From Taxillus chinensis (Eukaryota; Streptophyta; Magnoliopsida; Santalales; Loranthaceae), in assembly GCA_023512835.1 (NCBI GenBank), contig CM042088.1, positions 1,550,001 through 1,614,000 on the forward strand: a stretch of 64,000 nucleotides of DNA, read 5' to 3'. The translations under genes and the position numbers were made by a program. Below the pieces are notes generated by a model. That model ran no database searches. It had not been told where the DNA came from and worked only from the letters and a program-made list of their open reading frames with translations. Shown here piece by piece: positions 13,244 through 63,066 of this stretch (position 1 is the stretch's first letter; each line of letters starts with the position of its first letter).

Positions 13244-13301
<58 letters not shown>

Positions 13302-18907: not shown

Positions 18908-20416
18908 TGATAGACAGATTTTTAGCCTTCCAAAAAGAGTTAGCTAACGTCGTTAAACCTCACTTCAAGATATTTAATTCCCTTAGTTTGCACTAAACGG
19001 AATAGTAGAAAGTAAGGGGTCGAACCCATAAGGATTAGTCTAGTTCTCTAGTTTTTAAACCAAACCACTCAATTATTCTTGCTCTATGAAATGTCTTGGC
19101 AAAAATGAATTCTTTTCATAACTGAAGATCTAATTTTTATTTGGTTTTTTGAATAAACAAAGAAAGCAAATTGATTTTAGGATTAAGATTCAAGGATTAA
19201 AGGCATCTAGGGTCACAATTTCACCTCCCTATGTTGTTTCTACTAATTTTAAGGTTCTTGAGATTATTTAATTGATAACATGCTATAACTAAGCCAAGGT
19301 ACTGCAATTGGTTATTGCCAGCCATTCTAAGTGCTGTCTGCCTAAATGGTCATCATAACATCAACATGCAAAGCCTAATTATCATACTCATGACAGGATA
19401 ATGGTCACACCAATCACAAATATGTTATGAATCAAAGATCAGCCTCAGACTAAGGCTAAAAAAACCCAGGTGTACAGCCCAGATGTTAAAAGATAAGAAT
19501 AGATCCATAAAACATGCAATCTCAATTAAACAAACCCAATATTCAATCAATCAGTTTAACAACATAGGGGGCTACATTGCTCCCCTAGATAAAGGAAACT
19601 ACTCACACATGTTCTTGGATAAATAATAAGAAATAAAGAACATCATCCTCAAGCAGGTGCAGCAAAACTCCAACTTTAGGTCTTCTCCAGCCGTTAGACC
19701 TCCTAGGGTCGGCTGCTTCCAGGATCAGAACCCTAGCCTCCAAAACCGTCAGCCTCTCTCTCTCTCTCTAAAAAAGGTGCCCCCTCTCTACATGCTCCAA
19801 AAGGGCTATTGCCTCCTCTATTTATAGAGAAAACTGCTGTGCAATGAGTGCCCTAGCCGTCAGCAATTGCCACTTATCAAAACGACATAGTTTTGATAAG
19901 TAGTTTCCATTTTTCTTCCAACTTGAGTACAACTCGAACCAAGTATAATTTGGACTAGGTGCTTTAGAGAAAAGTGCTTAAAATAACAAAACAAAGCAAT
20001 CGATGCAAAAATCTGGCTACACGGCACATCGCACGTCATATGGCCATATGACGTGCACCTCTAAATGGTCTAGAATTTTGCTGCAAGCTTCCTTGACATG
20101 TGTAGAAGGCAGGACTGCAATAAAATCCTTGCACGTCATAAAAGTCCATATGGCGTGCACTCTTGTTTTGCCTCCTCAAGCTGCCCTATTTTGCCACAAG
20201 TTCCTTCTTTGATAAATGAAGTGATTTGGCTGGTGTCCATAAGATGAAATTGCCTAAAAACCTGCCATAGCAGCTCAAAAACACATTTATATAGGCCAAG
20301 CAATCTTCCTAGGGTGTTAGAGCAAATATTTAAGAAATATGGATGAATTAAGCTCCAATCATGCTCTTTAATACCCTAAATCTGCACTAGAATAACGGCA
20401 TAAATGCACGTTATCA
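18908..20416 (-). repeat. 3' LTR of Athila
   Basis: 1509 bp, beginning TGATAGACAG and ending GCACGTTATCA on the plus strand; the partner at 35125-36635 is 1511 bp and very similar by eye. It contains the promoter cassette described separately. No protein-coding gene. Confidence 0.93.
19818..20158 (-). promoter_or_regulatory. Athila LTR promoter cassette (3' LTR)
   Basis: In minus-strand order: an imperfect palindrome (20131-20158); a perfect 26 bp palindrome with arms GCACGTCATATGG and CCATATGACGTGC (20031-20056); an ACGT-type palindrome with arms CTTATCAAAAC and GTTTTGATAAG (19873-19900); and a TATA box (19818-19826). The arms contain TGACGT/ACGTCA cores, known binding half-sites of plant bZIP factors. 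Binding by any factor is inference. Confidence 0.65.
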
Positions 20417-22085
20417 AATACACCACACTTGAAACATTGCTTGTCCTCAAGCAAAAACACACAAACATACAAAAATAAAATAAACATACAGTCACACTGG
20501 AATGAAAATAAGATAAATAAAAAAAAATCAAAGAGAGTCATGGTTTCCTAGGCATACAACTCTATCATGATGAAGTGGGCAATCAAGTAACTCAAAATGA
20601 ATTATAATTAAGCTCAATCATGTCCATACCCCTAAGTTCAACAACCATGCAATCTCATCACTGAAAATTCAGACATTAGCAAGCATACCATGATAAAACA
20701 GCACCTAATTTCCCTTAAAGTTCTCACCTAGGATAAAGCTGCCTCACTCAAATATAAACTCTCATTTCTCTCCACACAAGCCCAAGTACCATACTTAACA
20801 GAAAATCAATGGGTGGAAAGCTCCTCCTACATTCTCCACTAGTTATTAATTAAGTACTTGCCAAGCAAACATGAGAGTTCCCTATTGTGCTCATCAAAGG
20901 AAACACACTCTCTATTCTACTTTGTTTGAAAACTCACACACTATTCTAATGACTGATAAAACACACCTTGAGCCAAACAAATGAGCTCAACACTCTAAAT
21001 AAACACAACTCAGCCAGTATGGCTTTTATTCTGAAAACTTTTTGCTTTTTTGTTTTTATTTTTTTTGTTTTTTTTTCACATTTCTTTTAAATAATAACCT
21101 TACAAGGTTGCATTTTATGCTCTCCCTTGATGGATTATTCACTCTTTTTTTTACTCACATAACATATAAATAAGACTGATTTTTCTAATGCATACCCTTT
21201 GCCATTTTACTAAGTAGGGAGAGACAAAAATTCATTGATGTCTCACATCCCATTATCAAATTAAGTGACGGCATTTTCACATTCTATATCACAGCCTTTT
21301 ACATATATAACACAACAAAACAGAAACTTGGATGCATATGAAGTCAAAGTGACTTAAATGACCTTGTATCACTAGCAACACACCAAGCACTGAGCACTAA
21401 TAAGTAATCATCACGCCTACTTAACTCCTACCATTAAATAGCTAATGTTAAACGCAGAGAGGAGCATCAAATCAAACTATTACCCAAAAACCATAAATGT
21501 CACTCAAGAGCTAGAAAGAGGTTTTTCTCATTTTCCTTTTGGATTTTCTTTCACTCAACTCTGAGGGTCACTAAGTGTTATCCGAACATGTCATGCTCAG
21601 CTAATATTCAAATTTCAGCACCAAAAACATGGTGATATCATTCAAGAAGTAAAGACATGCTTAAACCAAATCATAACACACTTTAATTACTTTAACACCC
21701 TTATCACAACATGATACTAATGTGGCATAAAAATTAAAATTAAAAGTTAAGCCAAAATTGCATACCTAGCATCCATGCCTCTCCACATATCCACATGCAA
21801 ATCACACAATCAAGCAACTCAAACAATCACACAAAATAAAAAGAACATTATAACTACTAAACAAACCAAAACAAACCAACACATACAATCAAGCAAAATA
21901 AAGGACAAACAAGTGGCTTGAGCCACTCCCCACACCACACTAAAAATATGCTATGCCCTCATGGCATGGTAGAGAGGTTAAGAAAAACTTGACCTATCTG
22001 CTGGTAAGCAATAATAGTAGATCACTTGGGTCACCAATCTCCGCACCCGAGCCACAAAATCGGCTGAAGTTTCACCGCGTATGGT
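20417..22085 (-). other. Athila 3' internal non-coding region
   Basis: It begins beside the LTR with AAGTGTGGTGTATT on the minus strand (likely the plus-strand primer tract). It is AT-rich and matches the reverse of 51806-53155 and 7017-8257. I see no gene. Confidence 0.75.
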
Positions 22086-24041
22086 TCATGTATCGCACTG
22101 CTGCAAAATAGCCAGCATATAATAACAAACGAAAATCGCCCAACTGAATTGATCAGGTTGCTGAGGGAATTCCATTTCCATGAGATGAATAAGAGGCAAT
22201 TTGTCCTGCAGCAACCACTCTTTCTTCATTGCATCCTTGATTCGTTTCAGGAGGCCATGGACTAGCTGCCGCTTCCTTTTGCTGAATCCATGTCCTTGAC
22301 TGGGATCATAAAGCACCGCGTGCCCTACACTCAAATCCAAACGCAATAATACAAAGTGGTGGTCAATGTGTACAGGTATTAGTACCTCATGCATGGTGTG
22401 CCAGGGTCGGCGACCTTCATTCGCACCATTCATGCGCTGTCACAGAATAGTTTTAGACAAGGGGTGCTAGTATAATTCACACAGCATAATAGACGTGTAC
22501 TGGGCCAATAGATAATCATGAGGCTCAGCCTCCACAATGAATCGCATGGTCCTGCAAAACAAATCCACATCATCAGTGAATAAAAATTCATTACCTGAGA
22601 TGCGCCGGAGGAAGTCGGAGGTGAAGACATCCATGTCTCGTGTAAAATGAGCTACCAGCATCGTAGGGTCAATAAAACTTGCAAACGCCTCTTGAGCTGC
22701 CGCAGAAGAGATAGCCGGATTAATCCGCAGATGCACCGGTGCACCAAGGAGATCTTGAGTTTCTGCTGGCATGTAAGGTCCCCATGAAATAGGTTGCATA
22801 ATGGGCACGATGGTCTGAGAATAGGAAGGATCCACAAAGGGATCAAATGATGAGTATTGTGGTTCCGGCGCAGCATCCTGCTGAAATGGATGATAATCAG
22901 TGTACTCCGCAAATGGCCCTGGTGGAGGGTACTCTTCTTGGGCAGGGTAGGAATTGTCGTATGCTGCAGGTACTGGAGCAGAGTCCTCATGTGCAGGAGG
23001 TACATCCTCATCAGATATCTCCACCACTGGAGATTTTTTTGACTTTTGTTTGTTGCTCAAGGCCCTCCAAATTTTTCCCAAAACTCTTTCTATTTCCCTG
23101 TTGTCTCTCTTTAGCCCTTCTACTGCACGCTTTGTTCCAATTTGATCTCTTCTCAGCTCTTCAGTTTCTTGCCTCCATGCATCATGAGGGGCAGCAGTAG
23201 GAGCTGCTGGAGCTTCCCATGCCCTTGCTGACGGTCTAGAATGGGACTGCTGATCTTGTGAAATAAGTGCCATTAACTCAGTAAATTGGGCACCATTGAT
23301 GTGATCATTTGTGAATGCCCAATTTATAACTTCCACCTCCACCTCACTAACCACTTGGCCACTGATACCTTGAAAGAAGTTGAAAACATCTTCCTTATGC
23401 ACATTAAAGTACATGTACATGGCAGTGAGCCTGAAGAGGGTCTGCTTTCTTTCATCTAAAGGTGTGGAGGTGTCTCGCGCAGCAAACCCAGTGGGTCTCT
23501 CCATATGAACACTGTGGTTCAGCTTGGGGAACATTCCCCCAGTTGCCTCTAGAGCTTACTCCTAAACCTCCTTCTGGTTGCAATACTCTCAAAAGTTGCT
23601 GAGATGGAAAGGGGGTGCTATCTAAAGTGGTAAAGTGCTGGGCATATTGGTTTTGAAAAATGACACATAGCATTCTTCCATATACTCTCTTTGTCAAGTT
23701 TTTCGTCCACCATTTGAAAATGGTGGCAACCGAGTCCACATCTAACATATGGTCAATGCTATACATGAATTCAAGATGGGTTATAGGCACACCATCCTTT
23801 CCACTAGTTTGCAACAGCAAACACTTTCCTACCAGATGAGCTAAACATCTAAATTTACTGTAATGACCCGCATTTTGGGATGTGAGGAGTTAGTCTCAGT
23901 TTTGCCTTTTTGGGTGGAAATTGTTGGGTTTTAGGGAGTTTTCTTCCCACACACTTGAGCTAAAACACCTTGGATGTTGGTGCACAAGTTTGAGGCAAGA
24001 GATGGGCCCAAGAGGGGACTTTTGGGAGGTGCACATGATAA

Positions 24042-24327
24042 TGCACGCCAATTGGGGATATGGCGTGCAAGGGGATTTTGGTTTTCCTGTCTTCTACATG
24101 ATGCAAAGAAGCTTGGGGTAGAATTTCAGGGTATTTGGACCTGCACGCCAATTGGGGATATGGCGTGCAGCCATATTTTTGTACAGTCACCTTGGTTTTG
24201 TTATTCTAATCATCTTTTCCCAAAGGACCATGTTGGAATTATGGATATTTTGTCGTGTTTAGATGCGAAAAGGTTGTAGCTTGTGCAATCAAAACTACGT
24301 CGTTTTGATGTTGTGATGCCTATATAA
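24042..24327 (+). promoter_or_regulatory. Family B LTR promoter cassette
   Basis: Two palindromes share the arms TGCACGCCA and TGGCGTGCA around the same ten-base centre (24042-24069 and 24141-24170). A third palindrome has arms ATCAAAAC and GTTTTGAT around TACGTC (24288-24309). TATATAAAG follows at 24321-24329. The order and spacing match the Athila LTRs. Confidence 0.7.
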
Positions 24328-24383
24328 AGAAGTGAAGACTCCTTGTTCTAGGGTTAGGGTTCTCTTCAGCCACTACAGCCGTC

Positions 24384-24419
<36 letters not shown>

Positions 24420-24679
24420 AGAGAGAGAGAAAGAAGGAGAGCTACCGGTTGCTGCCGGAGTGTCTTGAGTGGGAAGAATGGCGTCTAGCATAGGAACAAG
24501 GAGGATCTTCTTTAAGGTAGGGGTTCTGTCTTTCTTGGTTTGACCCGGGGTTAGGCCCGGTGTAGATGATTTACAGAGTTTCTATGGCTATGTTATAATA
24601 TTTATATGTAAATTCATATAGGTGTGACCTCCTATATGAATGTTGGCCTTCAATGGCGTGTTGTTTGGATATATTTATA

Positions 24680-24930
24680 TATGCATGCCAAGTGTTTGAA
24701 ATTATGCCTGTGAGGCTGTGCATATTATGTGTTTGAGATTATGCCTGTGAGTCCACGCATGTTAAGTGTTTGAAATGCCTGTGAGGCTGTGAATATTATG
24801 TGTTGAGATTATACCTGTGTGGCTGGGTTGTGAGCCTGTGAATATATGCATGCTAAGTGTTCGATGTTATTCCTATGTGACTAAGCATACTAAGTGTTTT
24901 ATGTTATGTCTGTATGGCCATGTGTGCTGT
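24680..24930 (+). repeat. Degenerate GTGTTTGA...GCCTGTGAGGCTGTG repeats
   Basis: Four to six imperfect copies of a roughly 45-55 bp unit containing ATGCCTGTGAGGCTGTG occur in succession. They lie downstream of the TATA box, so they would be transcribed. Confidence 0.65.
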
Positions 24931-24944
24931 GTGTTTGCGTGTAC

Positions 24945-25197
24945 ACCCGGTGGCTATGAAAGCCCGGGACTGTTTTGTGAAACCAGGTGGCTGTGGAAGC
25001 CCGGGACTGTTCTTGGAACCCGGTGGCTGTGGAAGCCCGGGACTATTTTGTGAAACCCGGTGGCTGTGGAAGTCCGGGGCTATTCTTGGAACCCAGTGGC
25101 TGTGGAAGCCCGGGACTATTTTGTGAAGCCCGGTGGCTGTGGAAGCCTAGGACTGTCTTGGAACCCGGTGGCTGTGGAAGCCCGGGACTGCCCATGT
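24945..25197 (+). repeat. Minisatellite with 36-37 bp GTGGCTGTGGAAGCCCGGGA units
   Basis: Seven copies alternate between two end variants, one ending TTCTTGGAA and the other TTTTGTGAAA. The units read through in all three frames, producing open frames such as GGCGSPGL repeats, which I take as by-products of the repeat. Confidence 0.85.
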
Positions 25198-26112
25198 GTT
25201 AGCCTGTGTGGCTGTTTGAAATATTTGTTTTTGCTGATGGCTTACTGTTATATTTGCTGAAATAATTATATCACGACACTGCACTTGTACACACGGCATG
25301 TAGATGCTAGGAGCATGGGATGGATTGGGGAGACATGATCCCTACTGAGCCATGGTTGCTCACCCCTCCTACCGTGTTGTTTTCTTACAGGAACCCACAG
25401 GCGTTAGGTGGGAACCAAGGAAGACCTACTTGTGGCTTGCTTATAGTTCTTGAATTTTGTTGTTTTTATGAACTTTGTAACCCAGTGGGGAGATCTTGTA
25501 ATGTGGAGTTTAATGTAATAAATGTAATGTTTGAACTTAATAAATATTTGGTTTTGTCTCTGAATATATAATGTGATGCGTATCTTGTGTTCTAACCCCT
25601 TTATCCAAACCCGGGTAAAGGGAGGGTCACGTTCCGGTCTCCTCGGGTTGGAAATCCGGGGCGTGACATTTACCCACAAAGCCATTTTTAGTAAACTGCC
25701 TCCTCCTCTCAGATCATTTTGCATAGTTAAAGGCAGTACCATACTCCCCTAAGGTCAGGTGAGGGAATCGATCAGTAGGTAAAGGAAGGTTAAAGGTTTT
25801 CCTAATTGTCTCTAGTGTGATACGGATATACACCCCCTGCACCTGCCCTATAACTGCACCCTCTACCTCATTAAAGTAAATGGAATGATAAAATTCATGC
25901 AAGGCGGGATAATAAATAGCACATCTGGCTGAAACCAATCTTACTAACCCAAGATTTTGAAGCTTTAAGGCCACCTCACTTGACCATCCCAGGTTGGATT
26001 CCTCTAAGGCATTCAGATCCAGAGCATACCCTAGGAAGATCTCCCCATCCTCACTGCTTGAAGAACTTGAGAAATGGACTTCTTCCTTGCCTGATCGCCT
26101 TGTGGGCACCAT

Positions 26113-26544
26113 CTTGCTATAGGAATTGAAGGAGAGGAAGGATAAAATTTAGCTACAACAGCAAGAACCAGAGCTTTTCAAATTTCAAATCTAGAAATCG
26201 TTTCTGGTGTATTTGACCTAGCTCCCGGCCTCAGTATTTATAGCGTGCAAAAGGAGATGTGCTTCAAATTCCATCATACACGTGTCCTCCAATTTTCAGG
26301 CTGATCGAACGAAAATACCCCTATGCAAGTCATATCATCATTGTGGCGTGCACGTTAAAATAAGCTCATATTCGGATGGTGGGTCCCTCATGAGCTGTAT
26401 AGCACATTTCTCTTCTGCACGGCATATCACGGAAGGCTCTAGAAGGCTGAAAAGTGGTATTTTTGACTTTTAACCACCAAATAGACAGATAAGATATGGC
26501 GTGCAGAAGACATTATGATTTCCCATGATGATAGCTGTCTTCCT
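26113..26544 (-). promoter_or_regulatory. Region between Athila integrase and the extra ORF, with TATA-like box
   Basis: A minus-strand TATA motif (CTATAAATA, at 26235-26243) lies 123 bases upstream of the ATG of the extra ORF. Further upstream (26325-26505) are GC-rich half-sites such as GGCGTGCACG, CTGCACGGCATA and GATATGGCGTGCAG, resembling the palindrome arms of the LTR cassettes. No protein domain is seen. It may be a separate promoter for the extra ORF; this is inferred from sequence only. Confidence 0.45.
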
Positions 26545-35121: not shown

Positions 35122-35124
35122 ATT

Positions 35125-36635
35125 TGATAGACAGATTTTTAGCCAACTAAAAATAGTTAGCTAATGTCATTAAACCTCTCTTCAAGATATTTAATTCCCT
35201 TAGTTTACACTAAACAAAATAGTAAAAAGTAAGGGGTCGAACCCGCAGGGATTAGTCTAGTTCTCTAGTTTTTAAACCAAACCACTCAACTACTCTTGCT
35301 CTATAAAATGTCTTGGCAAAAATGAATTCTTTTTATAACTAAAGATCTAATTTTTATTTGGTTTTCTGAATGAACAAAGAAAGCAAATTGATTTTAGGAT
35401 TAAGATTCAAGGATTAAAGGCATCTAGGGTCACAATTTCACCTCCCTATGTTGTTTCTACTGATTTTAAGGTTCTTGAGATTATTTAATTGATAACATGC
35501 TATAATTAAGCCAAGGTACTGCAATTGGTCATTGCTAGCCCTTCTAAGTGCTGTCTGCCTGAATGGTCATCATGACATCAACATGCAAAGCCTAATTATC
35601 ATACTCGTGACAGGATAATGGTCACACCAATCACAAATATGTTATGAATCAAAGATCAACCTCAGACTAAGGCTAAGAAAACCCAGGTGTACAGCCCAGA
35701 TATTAAAAGATATGAACAGATCCATGAAACATGCAATCTCAATTAAACAAACTTAATATTCAATCAATTAGTTTGATAACATAGGGGGCTACATTGCTCC
35801 CCTAGATAAAGGAAACTACTCACACATGTTCTTGGATAAATAATAAGAAATAAAGAACATCATCCTCAAGCAGGTGCAGCAAAACTCCAACTTTAGGTCT
35901 TCTCCAGCCGTTAGACCTCCTAGGCCGGTAGCTTCCAGGATTAGAACCCTAGCCTCCAAAACCGTCAGCCTCTCTCTCTCTCTCTCTAAAAAACGTGCCA
36001 CCCTCTCTACATGCTCCAAAAGGGCTGCTGCCTCCTCTATTTATAGAGAAAACTGCTGTGCAATGAGTGCCCTAGCCGTCAGTAGTTGTCACTTATCAAA
36101 ACGACGTAGTTTTGATAAGTAGTTTCCATTTTTCTTCCAACTTGTACAACTCGAACCAAGTATAATTTGGACTAGGTGCTTTTGAGAAAAGTGCTTAAAA
36201 TAGCAAAACAAAGCAATCGATGCAAAAATCTGGCTGCACGGCACATTGCACGTCATATGGCCATATGACGTGCACCTCTAAATGGTCTAGAATTTTGCTC
36301 CAAGCTTCCTTGACATGTGTAGAAGGTAGGGCTGCAATAAAATCCTTGCACATCGTAAAAGTCCATATGGCGTGCACTCTTGTTTTGCCTCCTCAAGCTG
36401 CCCTATTTTGCCACAAGTTCCTTCTTTGATAAATGAAGTGATTTGGCTGGTGTCCATAAGATAAAATTGCCTAAAAACCTGCCAAAATAGCTCAAAAACA
36501 CATATATATATAGGCCAAGCAGTCTTCCTAGGGTGTTAGAGCAAATATTTAAGAAATATGAATGAATTAAGCTCTAATCATGCTCTCTAATAAACTAAAT
36601 CTGCACTAGAATAACGGCATAAATGCACGTTATCA
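35125..36635 (-). repeat. 5' LTR of Athila
   Basis: 1511 bp with the same termini as the 3' LTR. The promoter cassette is at 36037-36375: TATA 36037-36045, ACGT palindrome with 11-base arms 36092-36119, perfect 28 bp palindrome 36247-36274 and a decayed one at 36348-36375. No gene. Confidence 0.93.
36037..36375 (-). promoter_or_regulatory. Athila LTR promoter cassette (5' LTR)
   Basis: Same order as in the 3' LTR. The main palindrome here extends to arms TGCACGTCATATGG and CCATATGACGTGCA (28 bp, perfect). The ACGT palindrome has arms CTTATCAAAAC and GTTTTGATAAG around GACGTA. This would be the copy driving transcription of the element. Confidence 0.65.
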
Positions 36636-36910: not shown

Positions 36911-36913
36911 ACT

Positions 36914-39522: not shown

Positions 39523-40043
39523 TGTGTGTAGTGTATGATCCATTTGTGTGTTGTGGCTTGCGGTTTTGCATAATGAGATACATGTGTTTGTTATTCCTTG
39601 CAGTTCTAGTGGTATGTTGTTTCTTTTTTAGGACAAAAAGTCTTAAGCGGGAGAGGATATAATGACCCGTGTTTTGGGATGTGAGGAGTTAGTCATAGTT
39701 ATGCCTTTTGGGTGGAAATTGTCAGGTCTTTAGGAGATTTCTTCTCATACACATTGGCTAGAACACTTTGCATATATATGAGCAAGCTTAAGGCAAGAGA
39801 TAAGCTCAAGAGGGGGCATCTAGAGGCTGCACGTGACAATGGCCTTTGTCACGTGCAGTATTATTTTTACATGGGAGCTTTCCAGACCAAGTTCTAAAGC
39901 TAGTGGCAAAATCCTAGGCCATTTGGAGGTTGCACGTGACAATGGCCTTTGTCACGTGCAGCCATGTTTTTGCACTGTCACCTTTGTTTTGTTATGTTGA
40001 TAATCATTTACCAAAGGGCCATGTTCGAATTATGGGTATTTTG
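39523..40043 (+). mobile_element. 3' end of a plus-strand family B element with truncated LTR
   Basis: Bases 39523-39657 are internal sequence ending with GGACAAAAAGTCTTAAGCGG and a purine tract, the mark of Tekay-like 3' ends. The LTR then starts TATAATGACCCG (39658) and follows the solo LTR at 23859 until about 40043, where copia LTR sequence begins within a shared TTGTC. Two palindromes with arms of 12-13 bases are kept (39827-39858, 39931-39960). No gene. Confidence 0.8.
39827..39960 (+). promoter_or_regulatory. Paired hairpins in truncated family B LTR
   Basis: The first hairpin has arms CTGCACGTGACAA and TTGTCACGTGCAG, the second TGCACGTGACAA and TTGTCACGTGCA, each around TGGCCT. The arms contain CACGTG (G-box). 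They differ from the arms in the solo LTR of the same family. Confidence 0.7.
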
Positions 40044-44962: not shown

Positions 44963-45619
44963 CTATGTAGAGAAGTCAAGCATACCTAATCGGATGAGTA
45001 GTTCAGAGAATCTTGCATCAGGTAGGGGCTTTGTAAGTATGTCTGCCAGTTGATCTTCAGTAGCAACATGTTCCATAGAAATGTGATTTTTGAGAACATG
45101 GTCGTGTATGAAGTGATACCTGACCTCAATATGCTTCGTCTTAGGGTGCATGACAGGATTGTTGCTGATAGCAATTGCACTAGTGTTGTTGCAGTAGAGT
45201 GGAATAGTTGACATGTTCAAACCGTAGTCAGTAAGTTGACTTTGCATCCAAGTAGTAGGTGTGCGCGGCAACTCCCAAAGAGCCTATATATTCCGCCTCG
45301 GCGAGTAGAGGTTGATACGGAATTCGCTTTCTTCGAACCATGAAATTAATCTATTTCCAAGAAACTGACACGTACCACTTGTGCTCTTCCTGTCGATGCG
45401 ACATCCAGCGAAGTCGGCAACAGAGTATCCGGATAAGGTGAAGTTGGACTCTTTTGGGTACCAGAGTCCCAAATTCATCGTTCCCTTGAGATACCTTAAT
45501 ATCCGTTTAACATGAAGCATATGTGACTCCTTGGGATTCGCCTGATATCGTGCACAGATGCAAGTTGCAAACATAATGTCTGGGCGACTTGCAGTAAGAT
45601 ACAGCAAGGATCCTATCAT
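44963..45619 (-). pseudogene. Copia RNase H region
   Basis: The start is [20 protein letters not shown], with RILRYLKGTMNLGLWYP, then VADFAGCRIDRKSTSGTCQF. After a TAG the same frame continues LYCNNTSAIAISNNPVMHPK, HIEVRYHFIHDHV and LADILTKPLPDARF. These are all typical of plant copia RNase H. A stop at about 45284 splits it. Confidence 0.88.
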
Positions 45620-46164
45620 CCACGTATATCTGTACGATTAGAGTGTGTCCTTTCTCTTTTCGTAGAAATAAGGTGGTGTCTATCTTCCCTTTTTGGAAGT
45701 TGTGAGCAAGTAGGAATTCTGACAGTGTGTCGTACCAGGCTCTTGGAGCTTGCTTCAAACCATATAAAGCTTTCCAAAGTTTGTAGACTAGATGTCCTGC
45801 TTCAGGTTCAATGAAACCGGGAGGTTGTTCTACGTAAACCTCCTCTTGAAGATCTCCATTCAGGAATGCGCTCTTGACGTCCATTTGATAAACTATGAAG
45901 TTTTCATATGAAGCATACACCAGAAACATTCGGATTGCCTCAAGTCTTGCTACTGGAGCAAAGGTCTCATCATAGTCTATTCCTTTTTCTTGACGATATC
46001 CTTTGGCTACCAATCTGGCTTTATTCCGGATTACTATTCCATCCGTATCAAGCTTGTTCCGGAACACCCATTTAACTCCAATGACTTGCTGAGACTTAGG
46101 CCTTGGTACTAAAGTCCACACATTATTTCTCTTAAATTGATTCAGCTCTTCTTGGATGGCTTCT
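45620..46164 (-). pseudogene. Copia reverse transcriptase with internal deletion after YVDD
   Basis: The RT reads [74 protein letters not shown] and [11 protein letters not shown]. The catalytic box is VQIYVDD. The next residues should be an IIFGST-type block, but the sequence jumps straight into the RNase H start (GATAGGATCC). About 100 residues are missing. A short ATGAT is shared at the join. Confidence 0.9.
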
Positions 46165-46166
46165 AT

Positions 46167-48059
46167 CTAATTCGAATCCTGAAGAGCTTCATCTACCACC
46201 TTTGGTTCTATTTGAGATAGAAAACACGAGTAAAGACTCATTTTGGAGGTGGCAACTCTTGTTCTTACACCAATAGTAGGATCACCAATCACTTGATCTG
46301 TGGGATGATTTCGAGTCCATCTGTAATTCTGTGCATGTGATGGATGATCTTGAACAATTTGAAGCTCTGCCAGATTAGGTGGTTCAGGTGTATCTGCTGG
46401 TTGAGCTTCGTTCGGACTAGATGTTTCCGTATTGGAAGGTACGGTAGAACTAGGTGGTTCTTCAACACTGTTTCTTTCAGTGTTAACTGGTCCGGACGGA
46501 CTTGAAGGTGCTCCGGAATTTTGGGTATCCGTAGGAGTATGTCCGGAGCTTAATGGTAGTCCTGAGTTCGAGTCATCCATAGCATTATCCATATAATTTC
46601 TTTGTGCCTCGCTGATGCCATGTGGTTGGTTAGAATGTGTAACAGGAACATTCATAAACTTCGAATAATCGATGTTAGTGTCCAGGACCTGCACATTAGA
46701 ACTTGAAGAAGCAACTTTTGACCAATCAAGATTAGCTTCATCAAAAGTCACATGGATAGATTCTTCAACTTTAAAAAGTTTTCTATTGAAGACCCGATAA
46801 GCCTAGCTATGTAATGAGTACCCGACAAAAATCCCATCATCAGATTTTGGTTCAAATTTATTCCGGGTTTCTTTGCCATTTATCAATATATAGCACGTAC
46901 ACCCAAAAGCTCTGAAATGTGAAATTGAGGGTTTTCGTCCTCTCCACATCTCATAGGGTGTTTTCATGGTAGATTTATTTACTAGAGTTCTGTTCTGAAC
47001 ATAGCAGGCAGTGGACACATCTTCAGCCCATAGACTGAGAGGAAGCGTTGCCCCTGCTAACATAGATCTACCAGCCTCAACTAAGGTATGATTCTTGCGC
47101 TCAGCTACCCCATTTTGTTGTGGAGTTCTGGGCGCAGAGAAGTCATGCTGTATGCCCTGTTCAGAACAATATGATCTAATTTCTAAAAAATCAAATTTTG
47201 TACCATGATCACTCCTGATGTACTTTATGCTCAGTCCTTGTGAGTTGCTTATCCAGTTGAAAAGATCTACAAGATGCTCAAAAGTTTGATCCTTTGATTT
47301 CAGGAACATCACCCATGTGTATTTGGTGAAATCATCGATAACCACAAGGGTATATCTCGCACCAGGCAGAGAAGGAACAGAAATAGGACCACAGAGGTCC
47401 ATATGAAGAAGTTGTAGAGGAGCAGTTATTGAATTAACTGATTTGCTCTTAAAGCTATGTTTGGTCTGTTTGCCCAGTTGGCATTCTCGATAGAGAGTGT
47501 CTCTGGAGAATTTGAGTTTAGGTAGACCAGTGACAAGATCAAGTGATGCTAATTTAGACAATGTCTTAAAGTTTAAATGTGCGCATCGCTTGTGCCATAA
47601 CCAACTATCTTCATCTGAAGCTTTAGTGAGGAAGCATACAGGGTCAGAAGAATTATTTCTTAAGACCACTACGTATATGTCCCCATCTCTTGATCTGGAT
47701 AACTTAACATCTACGGATAAGTTTTCTCTTACTGTACAAGTGTTGGACATAAAAGAAACAGTAAATCCTTTGTCACATAAATTACTGACACTTAGCAAAT
47801 TATGCTTTAAACCTTCGACTAGTGCAACTCTAGTGATTGATACACATCCGTTAGTTAAAGTGCCATACCCGACAGTCTTACCTTTGCTGTTGTCACCATA
47901 TGAAACGGATGGACCTCGTTTTACATTAACTTCTACAAGCAGAGTCTGATCACCTGTCATATGTCCGGAGCATCCACTATCGAGGATCCACTTGCTTTGA
48001 TTGATCTTTAACTTCAAGTGATCCGGCAATGCATTCCAGAGATGCTCCTGAAAGCCCAA
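46167..48059 (-). pseudogene. Copia protease end, integrase and linker
   Basis: The aspartic protease motif is WILDSGCSGHMTGDQTLL (about 47990-47935). The pre-integrase region has LWHKRCAHLNFKTLSKLASL. The integrase core has D in LLHMDLCGPISVPSLPGARY, D in YIRSDHGTKFDF and E in QQNGVAERKNHTLVEA. A TAG after GYSLHS (46803) and another after DSN (46167) interrupt the single frame that leads to the RT. Confidence 0.9.
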
Positions 48060-50339
48060 ACTTGTTTCGGGCGGTTAGAGAGAGCAGCAGTAATGTCAAC
48101 GGTTCTAGATTTGATTTTGCTAGGACTTTTAGCTCTCCAGGTTGACTTTAACTTGTTCGTTTCAGCTGCCTCTTTTATTTGGGTTTTCTTGGGAGAGACA
48201 CTCCTTTGTGGTTTAGATTTTGTTTTGCTCAAAGAAACCTTTTTATTAAACTGATCTTTATTGGTACGAATTTGATTACAAAGCCAATTATCAGATAAAC
48301 TCCAACATTCATAGTGATAATGACCCATTTCCCTACAAATGGAACAGACACTATAATGTGAAGTACAAACAGGGGATACAGGTCTCTTAGATTTTACAGA
48401 CTTTTTACTCTGTTCCCTGTGGCCTAATCCATTGCGTTTGGGTGACGCGCTCTTGGCCCTAGATGCGTCAGCCTTAGCCTTTCCTTTCTTTTTGGGTGCT
48501 ACAGTTTTGGCTTTAACTGCATCAGCCTTCCCTTCATCATTAGTTATGGGTGCTACTACTTTGGGAAGTGCAGTAACAGCCTCCACTCCACAGTCATAAA
48601 CTATGGTGCCACCTGAAATGAAACCATCCAACGGTTTAGATGTACTAACAGGATATAAGTTGGTTAGTTTTGGAGTGAAATCGGGAGGACACTCAGTAGC
48701 TTGAGCATTGGAGGTTGATGATTCGGAGCCTAGGCCAGGTTTGACTCGAATATTATCCGGATCAGTCCTAAATGTAGAGGCTATTTCCCCAGATTTAAGC
48801 CACTTACGATTTATTTCCCTTTCCTGTTCAAGTTCATTCTCGAGTCTTTTTACTATAACTTTTAGGCCTGAAAGATTGGTATTTAGCAGATGATTTTCAG
48901 CTCTTAGATCGTGATACCAAGCTTCTTTTCCTCTGAAGTCAGCTATGTCCTTTTCAAGTCTAGTAATAGTAAATTCAAGACGTTTATTCTGACTTTCCAT
49001 ATCTTTGTACATTTGAGTAATTATTAGTCTCTCATTCTTTTCGTGATCACATACAGTAGTAAGAGATTCTAATTTACTCATGAGCTCAGAGATAGAAGGT
49101 ACCTCAGTATTTGCCATGAGGCAGACGTTCGGCTTAGGAGTTGGCTCATCATCCGAGGATTCCTCCTCTTCTTCCAAGCCACTGATGTACTTTGTCACGA
49201 ACGCCTTCCTCTTGTTCTTGCTGTTGTCTGAGGTGGTACGTCGAAGAGTAACCTTGTCACTTTTCTCTGCCGTCTTAGATTTGGATCTGCATTCCTTGGC
49301 CCAGTGACCGGGTTTCCCACAATTAAAGCATTCTTGGGAGCTCGACTCCGATCGTTCCTTCCTTCTGGACGACGAGGAGCCTCTTCTGAATCCTTTTCTA
49401 CTTTTCCAAAGGAATTGTTCAAAGGATTTGACAAGAAGAGCTATTTCCTCTTCTGCGTCTGAGTCAGAATTCTCTGACTCATCCGTATCATCCTCTTAAT
49501 GATTACTGGAGCAATCCGTAGCTTTGAGAGCTACCCCTTTTTCTTTCCGAGCTATTTTCTCATCATGGTCAGTGTATCTGAATCTGACCTCATGAGTCCG
49601 AAGCTCTCCATATATTTCCTCAAGGGCAGTAAATGGCCGGTTTTTGTCAGCTTGCATCTGGAGCTGCTTGGAGTAGTAGCAATCCGGCAAGGATCGAAAG
49701 AACTTGTCATTGATTTGAGACTGAGTGTAGTGCTCATTGACAGTTTTTAGCTCTAGAATGAGCTTGCCGAATCTCCGATAGATGCTTTCAGGGATTCGCC
49801 AGGTTTGTGATTGAAACTCTCAAAATTCTGTCTGAGAGCACATATCACATTTTGCATCTGGGACTGACTCCCCTCATAGAGGATTGTCAGTTTATCCCCA
49901 GGCTTTTTGCTAGCGTGCAGCCCTGGACGTCCGTGAAAGCCTCGGAATCCAAAGACGATGTAACATAAGCCAGAGCCTTTTCACTAGCGCACTGCCAGGC
50001 TCTTTCATCGTTGGTAAGTTCGACATCTGTCTTTGGCCTCCTAATTCCATGTTCTCCGATAGTCATTGGAATTGGAATCTCCTGATGAAGACATGGCCAC
50101 ATGAGATGATCATGGCATACCATAAACATCTTCATGCGAGATTTCCACTGGGACAAAAGCTCAGGTGTGAATTTGGGCGGTTTTGTCAGAGTAAAACCAG
50201 AACTCCGTGGTAGAGGAGCGGCGGCAATAGCAGGTTGAGGTGGGTCGACGTTTTCACTGCTGCTTCGATTCGGGATGGGCTCTTGTGCACCTCCGGAGTT
50301 AAGGCGAGTGTTGAATAGCATACTGCTTTCTTCGGCCAT
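48060..50339 (-). pseudogene. Copia gag and long gag-protease linker with CCHC knuckle
   Basis: The ATG at 50339-50337 starts MAEESSMLFNTRLNSGG. The capsid part reads FTLTKPPKFTPELLSQWKSR and ERAWQCASEKALAYVTSSL, as in UBN2-type gags, then LQMQADKNRPFTALEEIYGE. The knuckle CFNCGKPGHWAKEC is at about 49331-49290. A second cysteine cluster (CSICREMGHYHYEC) occurs at about 48360-48310. Between them is a coiled-coil-like stretch (ISELMSKLESLTTVCDHEKN, then EFTITRLEKDIADFRG). Frameshifts and a TAA at 49496 break it. Confidence 0.85.
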
Positions 50340-50386
50340 TGCTTAGAGTAAAAGAGTGGGATCTATACTTTTGAACAAATAAACTT

Positions 50387-50398
50387 GCTCTGATACCA
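50387..50398 (-). other. Primer-binding site, initiator tRNA-Met type (copia)
   Basis: The minus strand reads TGGTATCAGAGC two bases from the 5' LTR. Confidence 0.9.
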
Positions 50399-50400
50399 CT

Positions 50401-51805
50401 TGATGGTCCCTTGGAGCCTAGAGGGGGGTGAATAGGCTCGTATCAAAACTCTTTCTAATCTCTTAAGACACCACACTTATCTAGTTAAGTGATAGAATTA
50501 CTGCGGAAGATAACCAGATAGTGGAAGTTTTTTGTTTTATTATCAAGAGATAATTACAACAAAATAGAAGCAAGACTCTCTTACACTCTGTTTACAAAAG
50601 GATTCACATACTAGCCTAGATTATATCTTTGAGCTCTTGTGCATACACAGGGTTAATTCAGGATCATTCGCTCTCGCTCACAAATGTACAAGTATGAATA
50701 TTTATACAAATATTCCTAAGAGACAACCTTGGAACATGTAGTTCCGGAAGGCGTTCAGCACTAACTATTCCTTGGTAATCTCTCTGCCTTGACTGTTGCG
50801 GTTTGTGGAGCTCAAGAACTTGGGTTTGAAGAGCATAAGTGCCTTTGTGAGTTCCCAAATATAACTAAGGTTGTGTCCACATATCCGGGTGATCCACGTG
50901 TAAGATTCTTTAGGTTTTCAACGAGTTTGTCTTACATCGGGACATCACGAGCTGATAACTTTAAATGCGGTAGTTTGAAGTAACATCTTCTTGATCTGGT
51001 GTAATTTTCCTTACTCCGTTGCTAATGAAGCTCGGAACCTTACTCTGTGTCAGTGGTTGCTTACTCCGTATCTATTTGGTACTGGAATCCTTAGTCCGGT
51101 GTCGTGGCTTCCTTACTCCGTGTGAATGAGAAGGTCGGAGTGCTTATTCCGTATCAGCGCTTCCTTATTCCGCATGTAAGTTCCTTACTCCGTATGTACG
51201 TTCCTTACTCCGTATGAGTTTAAAGGACCGGATGGCTTACTCCGTACTAGCCATCCTTACTCCGTATGAGTGAGTGGCCTGGATTCCTTACTCCGCATCT
51301 AGTTTCCTTACTCCGTGCGAATAAAGACTCGGGTCCTTATTCCGCATCAATACTTCCTTACTCCGTATGTATGAAAGACTCGGATGCCTTACTCCGTGTC
51401 TTCCTTACTTTAGTTCGCTTGAGGGGAAAACTTAACTTTTTAACTCCATGTCAAACCTTTTACTTCGTGCGACCTTGTAGACCAAGACTCTTACTCCGCA
51501 TCAGTTTGACTTAGTCCGTTTGAGGCATTAGGAACAGATTCCGTAATCCATAGCTTTTAAGTTCTTAGTCCGCATGAATGTTCCTTATTCCGTATGTATT
51601 GGTGACTTGGTTATTTACCAAGCGTTTGACGACACTCACTCTTGTCCGGATCAGGATTATGTATCATGTCCTTAGCTTTGCTCTCACGAGTGTATCTCCG
51701 GATTAATAACATATCTTCTGCAACGATCAAAGAAACACAAAAGATCTCAGATCAAATTACATAAGGCTTTATCATCATTATCCAAATTCTGGGCTTGATC
51801 CAACA
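50401..51805 (-). repeat. 5' LTR of the copia element
   Basis: 1405 bp, TGATGGTCCC to TGATCCAACA on the plus strand. A minus-strand TATA motif (TATAAATA) lies at 50699-50706. Upstream of it (sense) lies the CTTACTCCGTAT repeat region. No gene. Confidence 0.9.
51005..51600 (-). repeat. CTTACTCCGTAT-type dispersed repeats in copia U3
   Basis: About twenty copies of TTACTCCGTAT (with TTATTCCGCAT-type variants) occur at irregular 15-45 bp spacings. In sense orientation they read ATACGGAGTAA and lie upstream of the TATA box. Confidence 0.85.
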
Positions 51806-53155: not shown

Positions 53156-54225
53156 TGATAACGTGCATTTATGCCATTATTTTAGTGCATATTTAGGGTA
53201 TTAAGGAGCATGATTAGAGCTTAATTCATCCATATTTCTTAGATATTTGTTTTAACACCCTAGGAAGATTGCTTGGCCTATATATATGTGTTTTTGAGCT
53301 GTTTTGGCAGGTTTTTAGGCAATTTCATCTCATGGACACCAGCCAAATCACTTCATTTATCGAAGAAGGGACTTACGGCAAAATGGGGCAGCCTGAGGAG
53401 GCAAAATAAGGGTGCACGTCATATGGACCCTTATGATGTGCAAGGATTTTATTGCAGCCCTTCCTTCTACATGTTTCAAGGAATCATCGAGCAAAATTTC
53501 AAACCATTTGGAGGTGCACGTCATATGGCCATATGACGTGCAACATGCCATGCAGCCGGATTTTTACATGGATCGCTTTGCTTTGTTATTTTAAACACTT
53601 TTCTCTAAAGCACCTAGTCCAAATTATGTTTGGTTCGAGTTGTATTCAAGCTGGAAGAAGAATGGAAACTACTTATTAAAACTATATCGTTTTGATAAGT
53701 GGCAACTGCTGGCGGCTAGCGCACCCATTATACTCCATGTTTCTCTATAAATAGAGGGTGCAGCAGCCGTTTTCAAAAGAAGAAGAAAGGAGCACATTTT
53801 TTAGAGAGAGGAGAGAGAGAGTCTCACGATTTTGGAGGCTAGGTTCTGATCCTGGAGCTGCCGGCCCTAGGTCTGATGGCTGGAGAAGACCTAAAGTTAG
53901 AGTTCTGCTGCACCTTTTTGAGGATGATGTTCTTTATTTCTTATTGTTTATTCAAGAACATGTGTGAGTAGTTTCATTTATCTAGGGGAGCAATGTAGCC
54001 CCCTAAGTTGTTAAACTTATTATTTGAATATTGGGTTTGTTTAATGGAGATTGCATGTTTTATGAATCTGTTCTTCATCTTTTAATATCTAGGTTGTACA
54101 CCTGGGTTTTCTTAGCCTTAGTCTGAGGCTGATCTTTGATTCATAACATATTTGTGATTGGTGTGACCATTATCCTGTCATGAGTATGATAATTAGGCTT
54201 TGCATATTGATGTCATGATGACCAT
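53156..54225 (+). repeat. 3' LTR of Athila X, interrupted by Athila Y
   Basis: It starts TGATAACGTG and follows the Y LTR until GATGACCAT, where Y begins. In the intact LTR this position reads GACCATTCAGG (55288). ACCAT before the Y start is the likely target sequence. Confidence 0.8.
53413..53753 (+). promoter_or_regulatory. Athila X LTR promoter cassette
   Basis: Palindromes lie at 53413-53441 (imperfect) and 53515-53542 (perfect 28 bp). An ACGT-type palindrome with one mismatch lies at 53672-53699, and TATAAATA at 53746-53753. Confidence 0.6.
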
Positions 54226-55726
54226 TGATAACGTGCATTTATGCCGTTATTCTAGTGCAGATTTAGGGTATTAAAGAGCATGATTAGAGCTTAATTCATC
54301 CATATTTCTTAGATATTTGCTCTAACACCCTAGGAAGACTGCTTGGCCTATATATATGTGTTTTTGAGCTGTTTTGGCAGGTTTTAGGCAATTTCATTTC
54401 ATGGACATCAGCCAAATCACTTCATTTACTAAAGAAGGAACTTTTGGCAAAAATAGGGCAGCCTGAGGAGGCAAAACAAGAGTGCACACCATATGGACCA
54501 TTATAACGTGCAAGGATTTTATTGCAGCCCTACTTTCTACACATTTCAAGGAAGCTTGGAGAAAAATTTCAGACCATTTAGAGGTGCACGTCATATGGCC
54601 ATATGACGTGCAATGTGCCGTGCATCCGGATTTTTGCATCAATTGCTTTGTTTGATTATTTTAAGCACTTTTCTCTAAAGCACCTAGTCCAAATTATGTT
54701 TGGTTCGAGTTGTACTCATGTTGGAAGAAGAATGGAAACTATTTATCAAAACTACGTCGTTTTGATAAGTGGCAACTGCTGACGGCTAGGGCACTCATTG
54801 TACAGCAATTTTCTCTATAAATAGAGGAGGCAGCAGCCCTTTTGGAGCATGTAGAGAGGGGGGCACGTTTTTTAGAGAGAGAGGCCAACGGTTTGGGAGG
54901 CTAGGGTTCTAATCCTGGAGCTACCGGCCCTAGGAGATCTAACGGCTGGAAAAGACATAAAGTTGGAGTTTTGCTGCACCTGCTTGAGGATGATGTTCTT
55001 TATTTCTTATTATTTATCCAAGAACATGTGTGAGTAGTTTCCTTTATCTAGGGGAGCAATGTAGCCCCCTAAGTTGTTAAACTGATTAATTGAATATTGA
55101 GTTTGTTTAATTGAGATTGCATGTTTTATTGATTTGTTCTTATCTTTTAATATCTGGGCTGTACACCTGGGTTTCCTTAGCCTTAGTCTGAGGCTGATCT
55201 TTGATTCATAACATATTTGTGATTGGTGTGACCATTATCCTATTATGAGTATGATAATTAGGCTTTGCATGTTGATGTCATGATGACCATTCAGGAAGAC
55301 AGCACTTAGAAGGGCTGGCAATGACCAATTGCAGTACCTTGGCTTAGTTATAGCATGTTATCAAGTAAATAATCTCAATAACCTTAAATCAGTAGAAACA
55401 ACATAGGGAGGTGAAGTTGTGACCCTAGATGCCTTTAATCCTTAAATCTTAATCCTAAAATCAATTTGCTTTCTTTGTTTATTCAGAAAACCAAATAAAA
55501 ATTAGATCTTTAGTTATAAAAAGAATTCATTTTTGCCAAGATATTTTATAGAGTAAGAGTAATTGAGTGGTTTGGTTTAAAAACTAGAGAACTAGGCTAA
55601 TCCTTGTGGTTCAATCCCTTACTTTCTACTATTCTGTTTAGTGCAAACTAAGAGAATTAATTATCTTGAAGAGAGGTTTAATAACGTTAGCTAACTCTTT
55701 TAGGGAGGCTAAAAATCTGTCTATCA
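54226..55726 (+). repeat. 5' LTR of Athila Y
   Basis: 1501 bp from TGATAACGTG to TCTGTCTATCA. Followed by a primer site and gag in the same orientation. The cassette: palindromes 54482-54511 and 54585-54612, ACGT palindrome 54743-54768, TATA 54816-54823. No gene inside. Confidence 0.92.
54482..54823 (+). promoter_or_regulatory. Athila Y LTR promoter cassette
   Basis: The perfect palindrome has arms TGCACGTCATATGG and CCATATGACGTGCA. The ACGT palindrome has arms TTATCAAAAC and GTTTTGATAA around TACGTC. TATAAATA follows 48 bases later. Confidence 0.65.
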
Positions 55727-61562: not shown

Positions 61563-63066
61563 TGACAGACAGATTTTTAGCCTCTCTAAAAGAGCTAGCT
61601 AATGTCGTTAAATCTCTCTTCAAGATAATAAATTCCCTAAGTTTGCAATAAAAGAATAGCAGCAAGAAAGGGGTCGATCCCACAGAGATTACCAAGTTAT
61701 CTAGCTTTAACTCAAATCACCAAATCAATCTTGCTTAAAACAATGTCTTGGCAAAAACAAATTCTTTTTATAACTAAAGATCTAATTTTTTATGTGGTTT
61801 TCTGAATAAACAAAGAAAACAAACTGGTTTTAGGATTAAGATTCAAGGATTAAAAGCATCTAGGGTCACAATTTCACCTCCCTATGTTATCTCTACTGGT
61901 TCATGATATTAGGGTTGTCTGATTGAAAACATGCTAAACATAAGCCAAGGACAACAAATGGTCATTGAGGTCCTTTTAAGAGTTGTATGCCAGAATGGTC
62001 ATCAAAACACACAAACATGCAAAGCCAATAAATCATACTTGCAAAAGGATAATGATCACACCAATTACAAATAAGTTATGAATCTCAATCTGCCCCAGAC
62101 TAGGGCTAAAAATACCAAGGTGTACATCCAAAGATAGAACTTAAGAACAGATTTATAAAACATGCAAAACTCAATCATCCAAACCCAATATTCATAAACA
62201 CAGCAAAGCAACAAGGGGGCTACATTGCTCCCCTAGATTATAAGAACTACTCATGCATGATTACAAGCAAAACCATAGCAGAAAAGCTAAACATCTTCTT
62301 CTTAACCACGCGCACAGCAAAGCTTCAAATCCAGGCTCCAAAATCTGCGACGGCTGCGACAGCTGCGACGGCTGCTCTCCTAGGTCAAGGAGCAACCTCC
62401 AAGTCATGGAGCCTCTCTCTCTCTCTAAAAACGTGTAGGGGGTCTAGGATGCATAGCAGAGGCGTGGAGGCTTGTATTTATAGAGTTTGGATGGGCTTTG
62501 AGGTGTGTACCCTAGCCCATTTATCAAAACGGCGTAGTTTTGATAAGTAACACTCAAAACTTTAAAAACTCTATCTTCCATCCACAATTTGGACTTGGGC
62601 CTTCAGAAACAAATGATCAGCATGGAAAAACGATAGGATCGGTCCAAAAATATCTCTGCACGCTAATTCGCACGTGATATGGTGAATTCACGTGCAACTC
62701 CAAATCAGCTCAAACTTCTCCCCAAGCTTCCTTGAATCCTGTAGAGGCCTGAGAGGCAAAAATAGGCTTGCACGTGAAATGGGTGAATTCACGTGCAGCT
62801 CCAAATGCTCTAAAATTTCTGTGGTAGGTAGAGGACATCATTCTAAGCAACTTTTGTTCTTGCATGCCAATTGTTTGAGGCCATCTACTATGTCAAAAGT
62901 GAGCTCCAAAATCTGTCAAAACAGCTTAAAAACGCATGTATTTGCAAATAGCATCTTCCTAGGGGTTAGAGCAAATATATATGATATATGAGGCAATAAG
63001 GCTCTAATCATGCTCTTAAACATCCTAAATAAACACTAGAATAACGGCATAAAATGCACGTTATCA
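61563..63066 (-). mobile_element. Athila-type solo LTR inserted in the CACTA element
   Basis: 1504 bp from TGACAGACAG to GCACGTTATCA on the plus strand, so minus orientation. TTTAT flanks both sides (61558-61562 and 63067-63071). A TATA-like box lies at 62475-62482, an ACGT-type palindrome with 10-base arms at 62521-62546, and palindromes at 62670-62695 and 62769-62797. No gene. Confidence 0.93.
62475..62797 (-). promoter_or_regulatory. Promoter cassette in the Athila solo LTR
   Basis: The far palindrome has arms TGCACGTGAA and TTCACGTGCA, the near one GCACGTGA and TCACGTGC. The third has TTATCAAAAC and GTTTTGATAA around GGCGTA. Layout as in the other LTRs but with different arm sequence. 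Confidence 0.65.

What the first reader, a model, noticed from the sequence alone, without database searches (positions are those of the whole stretch)
18908..63066. Paired palindromes in U3 whose arms change between LTR families but stay self-complementary
At least seven LTRs in the window carry two palindromes 70-110 bp apart. Within one LTR the two copies tend to share the same arms; between families the arms differ. Athila LTRs: GCACGTCATATGG and CCATATGACGTGC (20031-20056, 36247-36274, 53515-53542, 54585-54612). Athila derivative: GCCCGTGACAA and TTGTCACGGGC (6337, 6438, 8630). Family B solo LTR: TGCACGCCA and TGGCGTGCA (24042, 24141). Truncated family B: CTGCACGTGACAA and TTGTCACGTGCAG (39827, 39931). 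Athila solo LTR: TGCACGTGAA and TTCACGTGCA (62769). Changes on one arm are matched on the other, and both palindromes in an LTR change together. This suggests selection on a dyad (a dimeric DNA-binding protein with evolving specificity) or on an RNA/DNA hairpin, plus concerted change of the two sites.
Basis: seen in the sequence. Interest (0 to 1): 0.85.

Follow-up and report, generated by a model that had tools for sequence, protein, structure and literature searches.

The report
Twin palindromes in plant retrotransposon promoters
The control regions of several jumping genes in this plant sequence carry two matching palindromes about 100 letters apart; the palindrome's letters differ between families of jumping gene, yet its two halves keep matching each other, much like palindromes already known from an unrelated group of plant jumping genes.

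Summary
Nine LTR copies carry two 28-30 bp dyads (V1, V2), starts 100-103 bp apart, upstream of a TATA box where that part is present. Arms covary (0/500 shuffles reach the score). V1 and V2 of one LTR are 95% identical against 73% between families; their flanks show no such pairing. Between families V diverges as much as the spacer (0.69-0.71 vs 0.67) while C stays at 0.93. New: the module is shared by LTR families with different ends, and in LTR B1 the V1-spacer-V2 block looks swapped in from an Athila-like LTR, with an old arm left behind. Half-sites also cluster at a putative internal promoter after pol. Closest known: Sirevirus palindromic repeat motifs; this is a Ty3/Athila variant of that kind. 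Most likely these are promoter-proximal protein-binding dyads renewed by cassette recombination. Binding was not shown; no genome-wide set could be searched.

The parts
36347..36376 (-). V1 dyad, 5' LTR of Athila-type element Aa
36247..36274 (-). V2 dyad (perfect 28 bp), 5' LTR of Aa
36091..36120 (-). C dyad, 5' LTR of Aa
20130..20159 (-). V1 dyad, 3' LTR of Aa
20030..20057 (-). V2 dyad, 3' LTR of Aa
19872..19901 (-). C dyad, 3' LTR of Aa
54483..54512 (+). V1 dyad, LTR Ab
54585..54612 (+). V2 dyad, LTR Ab
54613..54624 (+). extra 12-bp right arm (vestigial third arm) after V2 in Ab; counterparts in Aa5 36235-36246, Aa3 20018-20029, Ac 53543-53554, S 62657-62668
   Evidence: read in the alignment; half-sites at 36235 and 54616
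54743..54768 (+). C dyad, LTR Ab
54816..54823 (+). TATA box of LTR Ab
53413..53442 (+). V1 dyad, truncated LTR Ac
53515..53542 (+). V2 dyad, LTR Ac
53671..53700 (+). C dyad (decayed), LTR Ac
62769..62797 (-). V1 dyad, LTR S (61563-63066)
62669..62696 (-). V2 dyad, LTR S
62521..62546 (-). C dyad, LTR S
6437..6466 (-). V1 dyad, copy D1
6336..6365 (-). V2 dyad, copy D1
6192..6213 (-). C dyad core, copy D1
6741..6758 (-). decayed extra dyad arm upstream of V1 in D1 (read by eye)
   Evidence: sequence; nhmmer hit 6835-6745
8730..8759 (-). V1 dyad (broken), copy D2
8629..8658 (-). V2 dyad, copy D2
23859..25668 (+). LTR B1: solo LTR, TGTAATGACCC...GGCGTGACA, flanked by TTTAC on both sides (ends read by eye)
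   Evidence: sequence
24030..24041 (+). vestigial left arm of an older, B2/D-type V1 in B1 (10 of 12 letters as in B2, both differences transitions)
   Evidence: read in the alignment
24042..24069 (+). V1 dyad, LTR B1
24142..24169 (+). V2 dyad, LTR B1 (identical to V1, 28/28)
24288..24309 (+). C dyad core, LTR B1
39828..39857 (+). V1 dyad, truncated LTR B2
39931..39960 (+). V2 dyad, LTR B2 (identical to V1, 30/30)
26324..26352 (-). internal imperfect V-like dyad in Aa between pol and the next ORF (read by eye around the half-site)
26416..26505 (-). internal pair of V-type half-sites (26493-26505 and 26416-26428)
26235..26242 (-). TATA box-like sequence downstream of the internal dyads
25714..26112 (-). 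ORF of 132 aa starting about 120 bp downstream of the internal TATA; no Pfam match

Best explanation
The paired V dyads and the C dyad are promoter-proximal cis-regulatory elements of LTR retrotransposons (Athila-type Ty3 elements and at least one other LTR family). The V dyads are most likely bound as DNA by a symmetric, probably dimeric, sequence-specific protein; the outer TGC(A/C)CG half-site is the shared core and the inner arm sets family specificity. New specificities spread by recombination of the V1-spacer-V2 cassette between LTR families, most likely template switching during reverse transcription, with joints in the dyads, whose shared outer letters give microhomology; arm-to-arm copying helps keep each dyad symmetric. 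Shown here: position, symmetry, concerted change, mosaic blocks. Inferred: binding, dimer, template switching as the route, effect on transcription.
For: Position: V1, V2, C, TATA in the same order in A, S, D and B1; V1-V2 spacing 100-103 bp in 9 of 9. Strict half-site: 32 in the window vs 1.58 per shuffle; the only 2 outside LTR U3 lie upstream of a TATA and an ORF inside Aa. Symmetry: 89.7% of cells paired, 17 cells changed on both sides, 0 of 500 shuffles reach either; slid controls 12-52% paired (13 distinct of 18 rows). Concert: true V1-V2 pairing ranks 1 of 120, flanks 43 and 84 of 120 (31 and 112 with another A copy). Contrast: C 0.93 identical between four families, V 0.69-0.71, spacer 0.67. 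Cassette exchange: B1-B2 similarity z 14.8 before V1, 3.3 between V1 and V2, 19.3 after V2, while in the middle B1-S is 13.0 and B1-A 9.9; informative sites B2-only:S-only 48:15 in the flanks, 5:17 in the spacer, Fisher p 1.8e-5. An old-type arm remains left of B1-V1. Extra upstream sites in D are decayed while the two proximal ones of D1 are kept.
Against: No binding, expression or small-RNA data. Half-site distance differs by 2 bp between V1 and V2 in A and 1 bp in S, and by 2 bp between families. The inner arms do not share one known factor core (G-box only in B2 and S; recalled). In family A, V1 is imperfect in 4 of 4 copies with 10 minority letters in 30 columns; V2 (1 in 28) is not exceptional and C (5 in 30) is average. 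Two of the five covariation measures are not exceptional (174 and 47 of 500 shuffles as high). The mosaic is not a clean two-parent case: B2 also resembles A and D before V1 over a longer stretch (z 10.1 Ac, 7.1 Aa3, 11.5 D1) and Aa3 in the spacer (8.3; Ac 3.2); S is not alignable to B1 before V1 (z -0.7), so S-only sites there are chance agreement. The sample is 9 copies, about 5 lineages, from one window.
Confidence: 0.5

Rival explanations
1. The dyads act as hairpins: in RNA (U3 lies in the 3' end of the genomic transcript, and the internal cluster lies inside it) or as cruciforms. Selection keeps the stem, not the letters; hairpin RNA may serve export, packaging or dimerisation, or be diced into small RNAs.
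For: All nine sequences folded (8 V, 1 C) form hairpins, V at -12.1 to -21.7 kcal/mol and C at -9.4 (no shuffled control was run for these folds). Letters diverge like the spacer while pairing is kept; loop length varies by 1-2 nt, which hairpins tolerate. Sirevirus palindromes are small-RNA hotspots (statements in PMC10760457 and PMC5311732, passages seen).
Against: C is a dyad of similar size in the same LTRs yet keeps its letters. The outer half-site core is conserved, which a pure stem would not need. V sits upstream of TATA, so only the 3' LTR copy would be transcribed.
Confidence: 0.2
2. Symmetry is kept by mutation bias alone: template switching at imperfect palindromes copies one arm onto the other, and recombination spreads whole modules; no selection on the dyad.
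For: Arm homogenisation and spacer inversion by template switching are documented (PMC8604942, abstract and passages). The perfect zero-loop dyad A-V2 with an extra third arm, and the old arm beside B1-V1, look like products of such switches.
Against: Does not explain fixed place and ~101 bp spacing in all five lineages, the half-site cluster at a second TATA, decay of extra upstream sites in D while the two proximal ones of D1 persist, or why C in the same LTRs keeps its letters.
Confidence: 0.18
3. Ordinary host transcription-factor sites (bZIP/bHLH-type ACGT cores in inverted repeat) inherited from a common ancestral U3, with no special co-evolution.
For: B2 and S arms hold CACGTG and A arms hold TGACGTG (sequence; identification recalled, no binding database searched).
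Against: D (CCCGTG) and B1 (CACGCC) have no ACGT core, yet keep full outer symmetry and matching paired sites. Inherited orthologous sites should be more alike between LTRs than V1 and V2 within one; the reverse is found.
Confidence: 0.12

Closest known systems
Sirevirus repeated motif (RM) boxes, Ty1/copia (Bousios et al. 2010, PMC2829016; section 9 read, other passages seen)
   Same: Palindromes with dyad symmetry upstream of the TATA box in the LTR; further copies just upstream of the env-like gene; letters differ between elements around a conserved core; copies within one element commonly over 85% identical; some elements of low overall homology share nearly the same motif.
   Different: Here Ty3/Athila-type LTRs and a second, unclassified LTR family; 2 long dyads (28-30 bp) at 100-103 bp instead of 8-32 short ones; core TGC(A/C)CG...CG(T/G)GCA instead of CGG-CCG; a separate near-invariant dyad C; signs of cassette exchange. 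The paper calls RM a Sirevirus-specific feature, by comparison with classic Ty1/copia elements.
Palindrome clusters of maize Sirevirus LTRs as small-RNA hotspots (Bousios et al. 2016; the paper itself was not held, known from statements in PMC10760457 and PMC5311732)
   Same: Rapidly evolving palindromes in the LTR cis-region.
   Different: Small-RNA link untested here; [quoted passage not shown]
VANDAL/VANC anti-silencing motifs of Arabidopsis (Hosaka et al. 2017, PMC5735166; passages seen)
   Same: Family-specific short motifs in noncoding DNA that change together within an element, matched by a protein of changing specificity.
   Different: VANC21 motifs are arrayed densely in one orientation, not as dyads; they belong to DNA transposons, and the protein is element-encoded. 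No partner protein is known here.
Template-switch homogenisation of inverted repeats (PMC8604942; abstract and passages seen)
   Same: Keeps two arms matched and can invert the spacer.
   Different: A mutational process, not a cis-element; does not set position or spacing.

Membership tests
Sirevirus RM boxes | Carrier is a Ty1/copia Sirevirus | tested here: not met
   Aa has Retrotrans_gag, RVT_1, RT_RNaseH, H2C2 and rve in Ty3 order with LTRs TGATAACG...; the copia domains found (45507-48074) are in another element
Sirevirus RM boxes | Palindromic motif upstream of the LTR TATA box | tested here: met
Sirevirus RM boxes | CGG-CCG core (12 of the 13 published motifs) | tested here: not met
   core is TGC(A/C)CG
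Sirevirus RM boxes | At least eight copies per element | tested here: not met
   two V dyads per LTR, plus decayed extras in D
Sirevirus RM boxes | Extra copies just upstream of the env-like gene | tested here: inconclusive
   half-site cluster 26324-26505 upstream of a TATA and an ORF after pol in one element; the ORF has no Pfam match
Sirevirus RM boxes | High identity of copies within an element | tested here: met
   V1-V2 identity at least 0.85 in 6 of 9 copies, 0.77-0.83 in 3
Athila lineage of Ty3 (for the A LTRs) | Ty3 domain order, extra ORF after pol, tRNA-Asp primer site after the LTR | tested here: inconclusive
VANC-type recognition | Element-encoded protein that binds the motif | not testable with these tools
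   no candidate protein; no binding data

The most novel reading that the evidence does not exclude
The V dyads are an exchangeable address code of plant Ty3 LTRs: both sites and the DNA between them are traded as one cassette between different LTR families, the dyads themselves being the recombination joints, so that elements switch as a unit to a new recognition specificity at the LTR promoter and at an internal promoter.
Probability: 0.27. Interest if true: 0.8.

Novelty: new variant of a known kind. Interest (0 to 1): 0.6.

Why it matters
If general, palindromes around promoters would be a recurrent solution in both great groups of plant LTR retrotransposons, with letters free to change and symmetry kept. 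That makes a testable case of co-evolution between elements and a host or element factor (or the silencing machinery), and of cassette exchange between different families. The near-invariant dyad C in the same LTRs is a built-in control for such tests.

Tried and rejected
Relatives elsewhere: no match in viral contigs for the LTR start, the A dyad or the C dyad; a pol piece matched patterns in 11 stretches but none encoded a relative; the C dyad pattern hit two bacterial contigs, taken as chance. Literature: sequence-letter searches gave no plant retrotransposon paper among those listed (3 of 3 listed; 20 of 28 listed). Word searches (several list only the best of many) gave no paper, among titles listed and passages read, that describes these dyads in Athila; most listed papers were not opened. 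PMC6911290 and PMC1142308 (passages) concern insertion sites and a soybean relative and do not mention such dyads in the passages seen.

Selection inside family A: tested and not significant. RNAalifold and covariance models were not run; the pair count was used. The chromovirus-like pol at 14-17 kb as owner of LTR B was considered but not shown. The wider half-site pattern (36 vs 2.73 per shuffle) was widened after I had seen the site at 26416, and it also hits 38094; the strict pattern keeps 2 sites in the cluster, and 2 of 200 shuffles show any such pair. With the bare TGCACG, 17 of 52 sites lie outside LTR U3, 5 of them in the cluster; 2 of 200 shuffles show three within 170 bp.
Full report
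What is there. The window is full of nested LTR retrotransposons of plant type. Nine copies matter here: Athila-type A LTRs at 35125-36635 and 18908-20416 (ends of one element on the minus strand, Aa), 54226-55726 (Ab) and 53156-54225 (Ac, cut off where Ab begins); LTR S at 61563-63066, with TTTAT on both sides; two copies D at 5962-7016 and 8255-9318, whose low end is not a CA end and may not be a complete LTR; LTR B1 at 23859-25668; and a truncated LTR B2 from about 39658 to 40041. The A, S and D copies start with TGATAACGTGCAT. B1 starts TGTAATGACCC, ends GGCGTGACA and has TTTAC on both sides, read by eye, so I take it as a solo LTR.

The dyads. Scanning the whole window for perfect dyads with arms of 10 or more and gaps up to 12 gave 15: ten are V sites, four are copies of a second motif C, and one (24612) lies further down LTR B1. 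Four shuffles gave 0, 0, 1 and 3. With mismatches allowed, 41 dyads score 8.5 or more against 5-16 in 20 shuffles, and each of the 7 scores above the shuffle maximum of 12.0 is a V or C site. Each of the nine copies has V1 and V2 with starts 100-103 bp apart. In LTR coordinates the order is V1, V2, C, TATA in A, S, D and B1; B2 is cut off before C.

Arms change in pairs. On an alignment of 18 sites (13 distinct rows), 89.7% of cells are standard pairs, 17 cells are changed on both sides and the covariation score is 0.327; none of 500 shuffles reaches any of these, and slid structures pair in 12-52% of cells. Two weaker measures are not exceptional: pairs with a change on both sides (174 of 500 shuffles as high) and further pair types (47 of 500). 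Relatedness of rows inflates such tests, so I rely more on the family-level tests.

Both sites change together. With one representative per family (5 families), V1-V2 identity within an LTR is 0.946 against 0.734 between LTRs and the true pairing is the best of 120 permutations; for the 30-bp flanks the true pairing ranks 43rd and 84th. With another A copy the dyad result is again rank 1 (0.933 vs 0.729), flanks rank 31 and 112, and two of the six arm-level tests rank 2 instead of 1. B1 and B2 have exact copies, loop included (28/28, 30/30), which points to copying rather than independent parallel change.

Letters free, symmetry kept. Among A (Ab), S, D and B1, mean identity is 0.93 for the C core, 0.69 for V1, 0.71 for V2 and 0.67 for the spacer between them. 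V therefore diverges like its surroundings, apart from the outer TGC(A/C)CG, but stays a dyad, while C keeps its letters. C is thus a control inside the same LTRs.

A shared, mosaic module. B1 shows no clear similarity to A or S in its first 80-170 bp or after TATA (z 0.4-3.5), yet the stretch around the dyads aligns (z 7.7-12.7 for B1 after V2; alignment). The similarity is not confined to V1-C: B2 also resembles Ac, Aa3 and D1 before V1 (z 10.1, 7.1, 11.5). B1 and B2 agree in the 60-74 bp before V1 (z 14.8) and after V2 (19.3) but hardly between (3.3), where B1 agrees with S (13.0) and A (9.9). Informative sites, B1 with B2 only versus S only: 48:15 in the flanks and 5:17 in the spacer, Fisher p 1.8e-5; with the three A copies tested (of four), p 1.7e-4 to 5.2e-4. 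Before V1, S and B1 are not alignable (z -0.7), so the fair comparison there is after V2 alone, 24:9. B2's spacer is itself partly like A (z 8.3 with Aa3, 3.2 with Ac; 5.4 with Ab), so the history has more than two parents. S and D agree before V1 (z 19.6) but weakly between V1 and V2 (3.6). At the left joint of B1, twelve letters (24030-24041) match the left arm of B2 in 10 positions, both differences being transitions: an apparent remnant of the dyad that was replaced. In A and S an extra 12-bp right arm follows V2. In D, two decayed sites, read by eye with nhmmer support, lie upstream of V1. The spacer may simply evolve fast in some lineages, but that would not make B1 match S and A there.

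Internal cluster. The strict half-site TGC(A/C)CG(T/C)(G/C)A occurs 32 times (1.58 per shuffle); the only two outside LTR U3 regions lie at 26344 and 26497, on the minus strand of Aa between the end of pol and an ORF, upstream of a TATA-like box. A wider pattern finds a third there and one stray site at 38094. Two of 200 shuffles contain any pair of strict sites within 170 bp. The ORF has no Pfam match. This resembles the Sirevirus arrangement, where motif copies lie upstream of env (PMC2829016 section 9), but it is one copy in one element.

Mechanism. I favour DNA-bound dyads of the U3 enhancer, renewed by cassette recombination, at 0.5. A hairpin function (0.2) and mutation bias alone (0.18) remain open; template switching probably contributes under any model. 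The 1-2 bp difference in half-site spacing between V1 and V2 of some LTRs speaks against a rigid dimer. The test of constraint among the four A copies was not significant.

Known or new. Sirevirus repeated motifs are the same kind of thing in Ty1/copia elements and share position, symmetry, element-specific letters and the env-side copies. The carrier, core, number and length differ, so this is not a member but a variant. That the searches listed found no description in Athila says little, since most subscription papers are not in the library.

Added or mended: B2's similarity to A and D before V1 and in the spacer, the stray half-site, the bare-core count, the uncertain end of D, the start of B2 and the list of translations.

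Noticed in passing
window 40042-51805: A copia element (LTRs 40042-40398 and 51449-51805, 97% identical) on the minus strand carries, downstream of pol, a 563-aa ORF (40542-42233) with a C-terminal Ulp1/C48 peptidase match (E 1.2e-5).
   Followed up: no
window 53156-55726: LTR Ac stops where LTR Ab begins (54225/54226), as if an Athila-type element had inserted into the LTR of a relative.
   Followed up: partly
window 24945-25189: Head-to-tail repeated units (CCCGGTGGCTGTGGAAGCCCGGGACT...) inside LTR B1 downstream of its TATA.
   Followed up: no
window 24288-24309, 54743-54768, 62521-62546: Near-invariant dyad C (ATCAAAACTACGTCGTTTTGAT) shared by LTR families with different ends; a letter search of papers gave nothing relevant.
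   Followed up: partly
window 11459-14350 and 36914-39519: Repeated blocks (88-93% identical) beside minus-strand pieces that read like an integrase C-terminus (13958-14359, 39043-39627; read by eye), possibly long LTRs of another Ty3 element.
   Followed up: no
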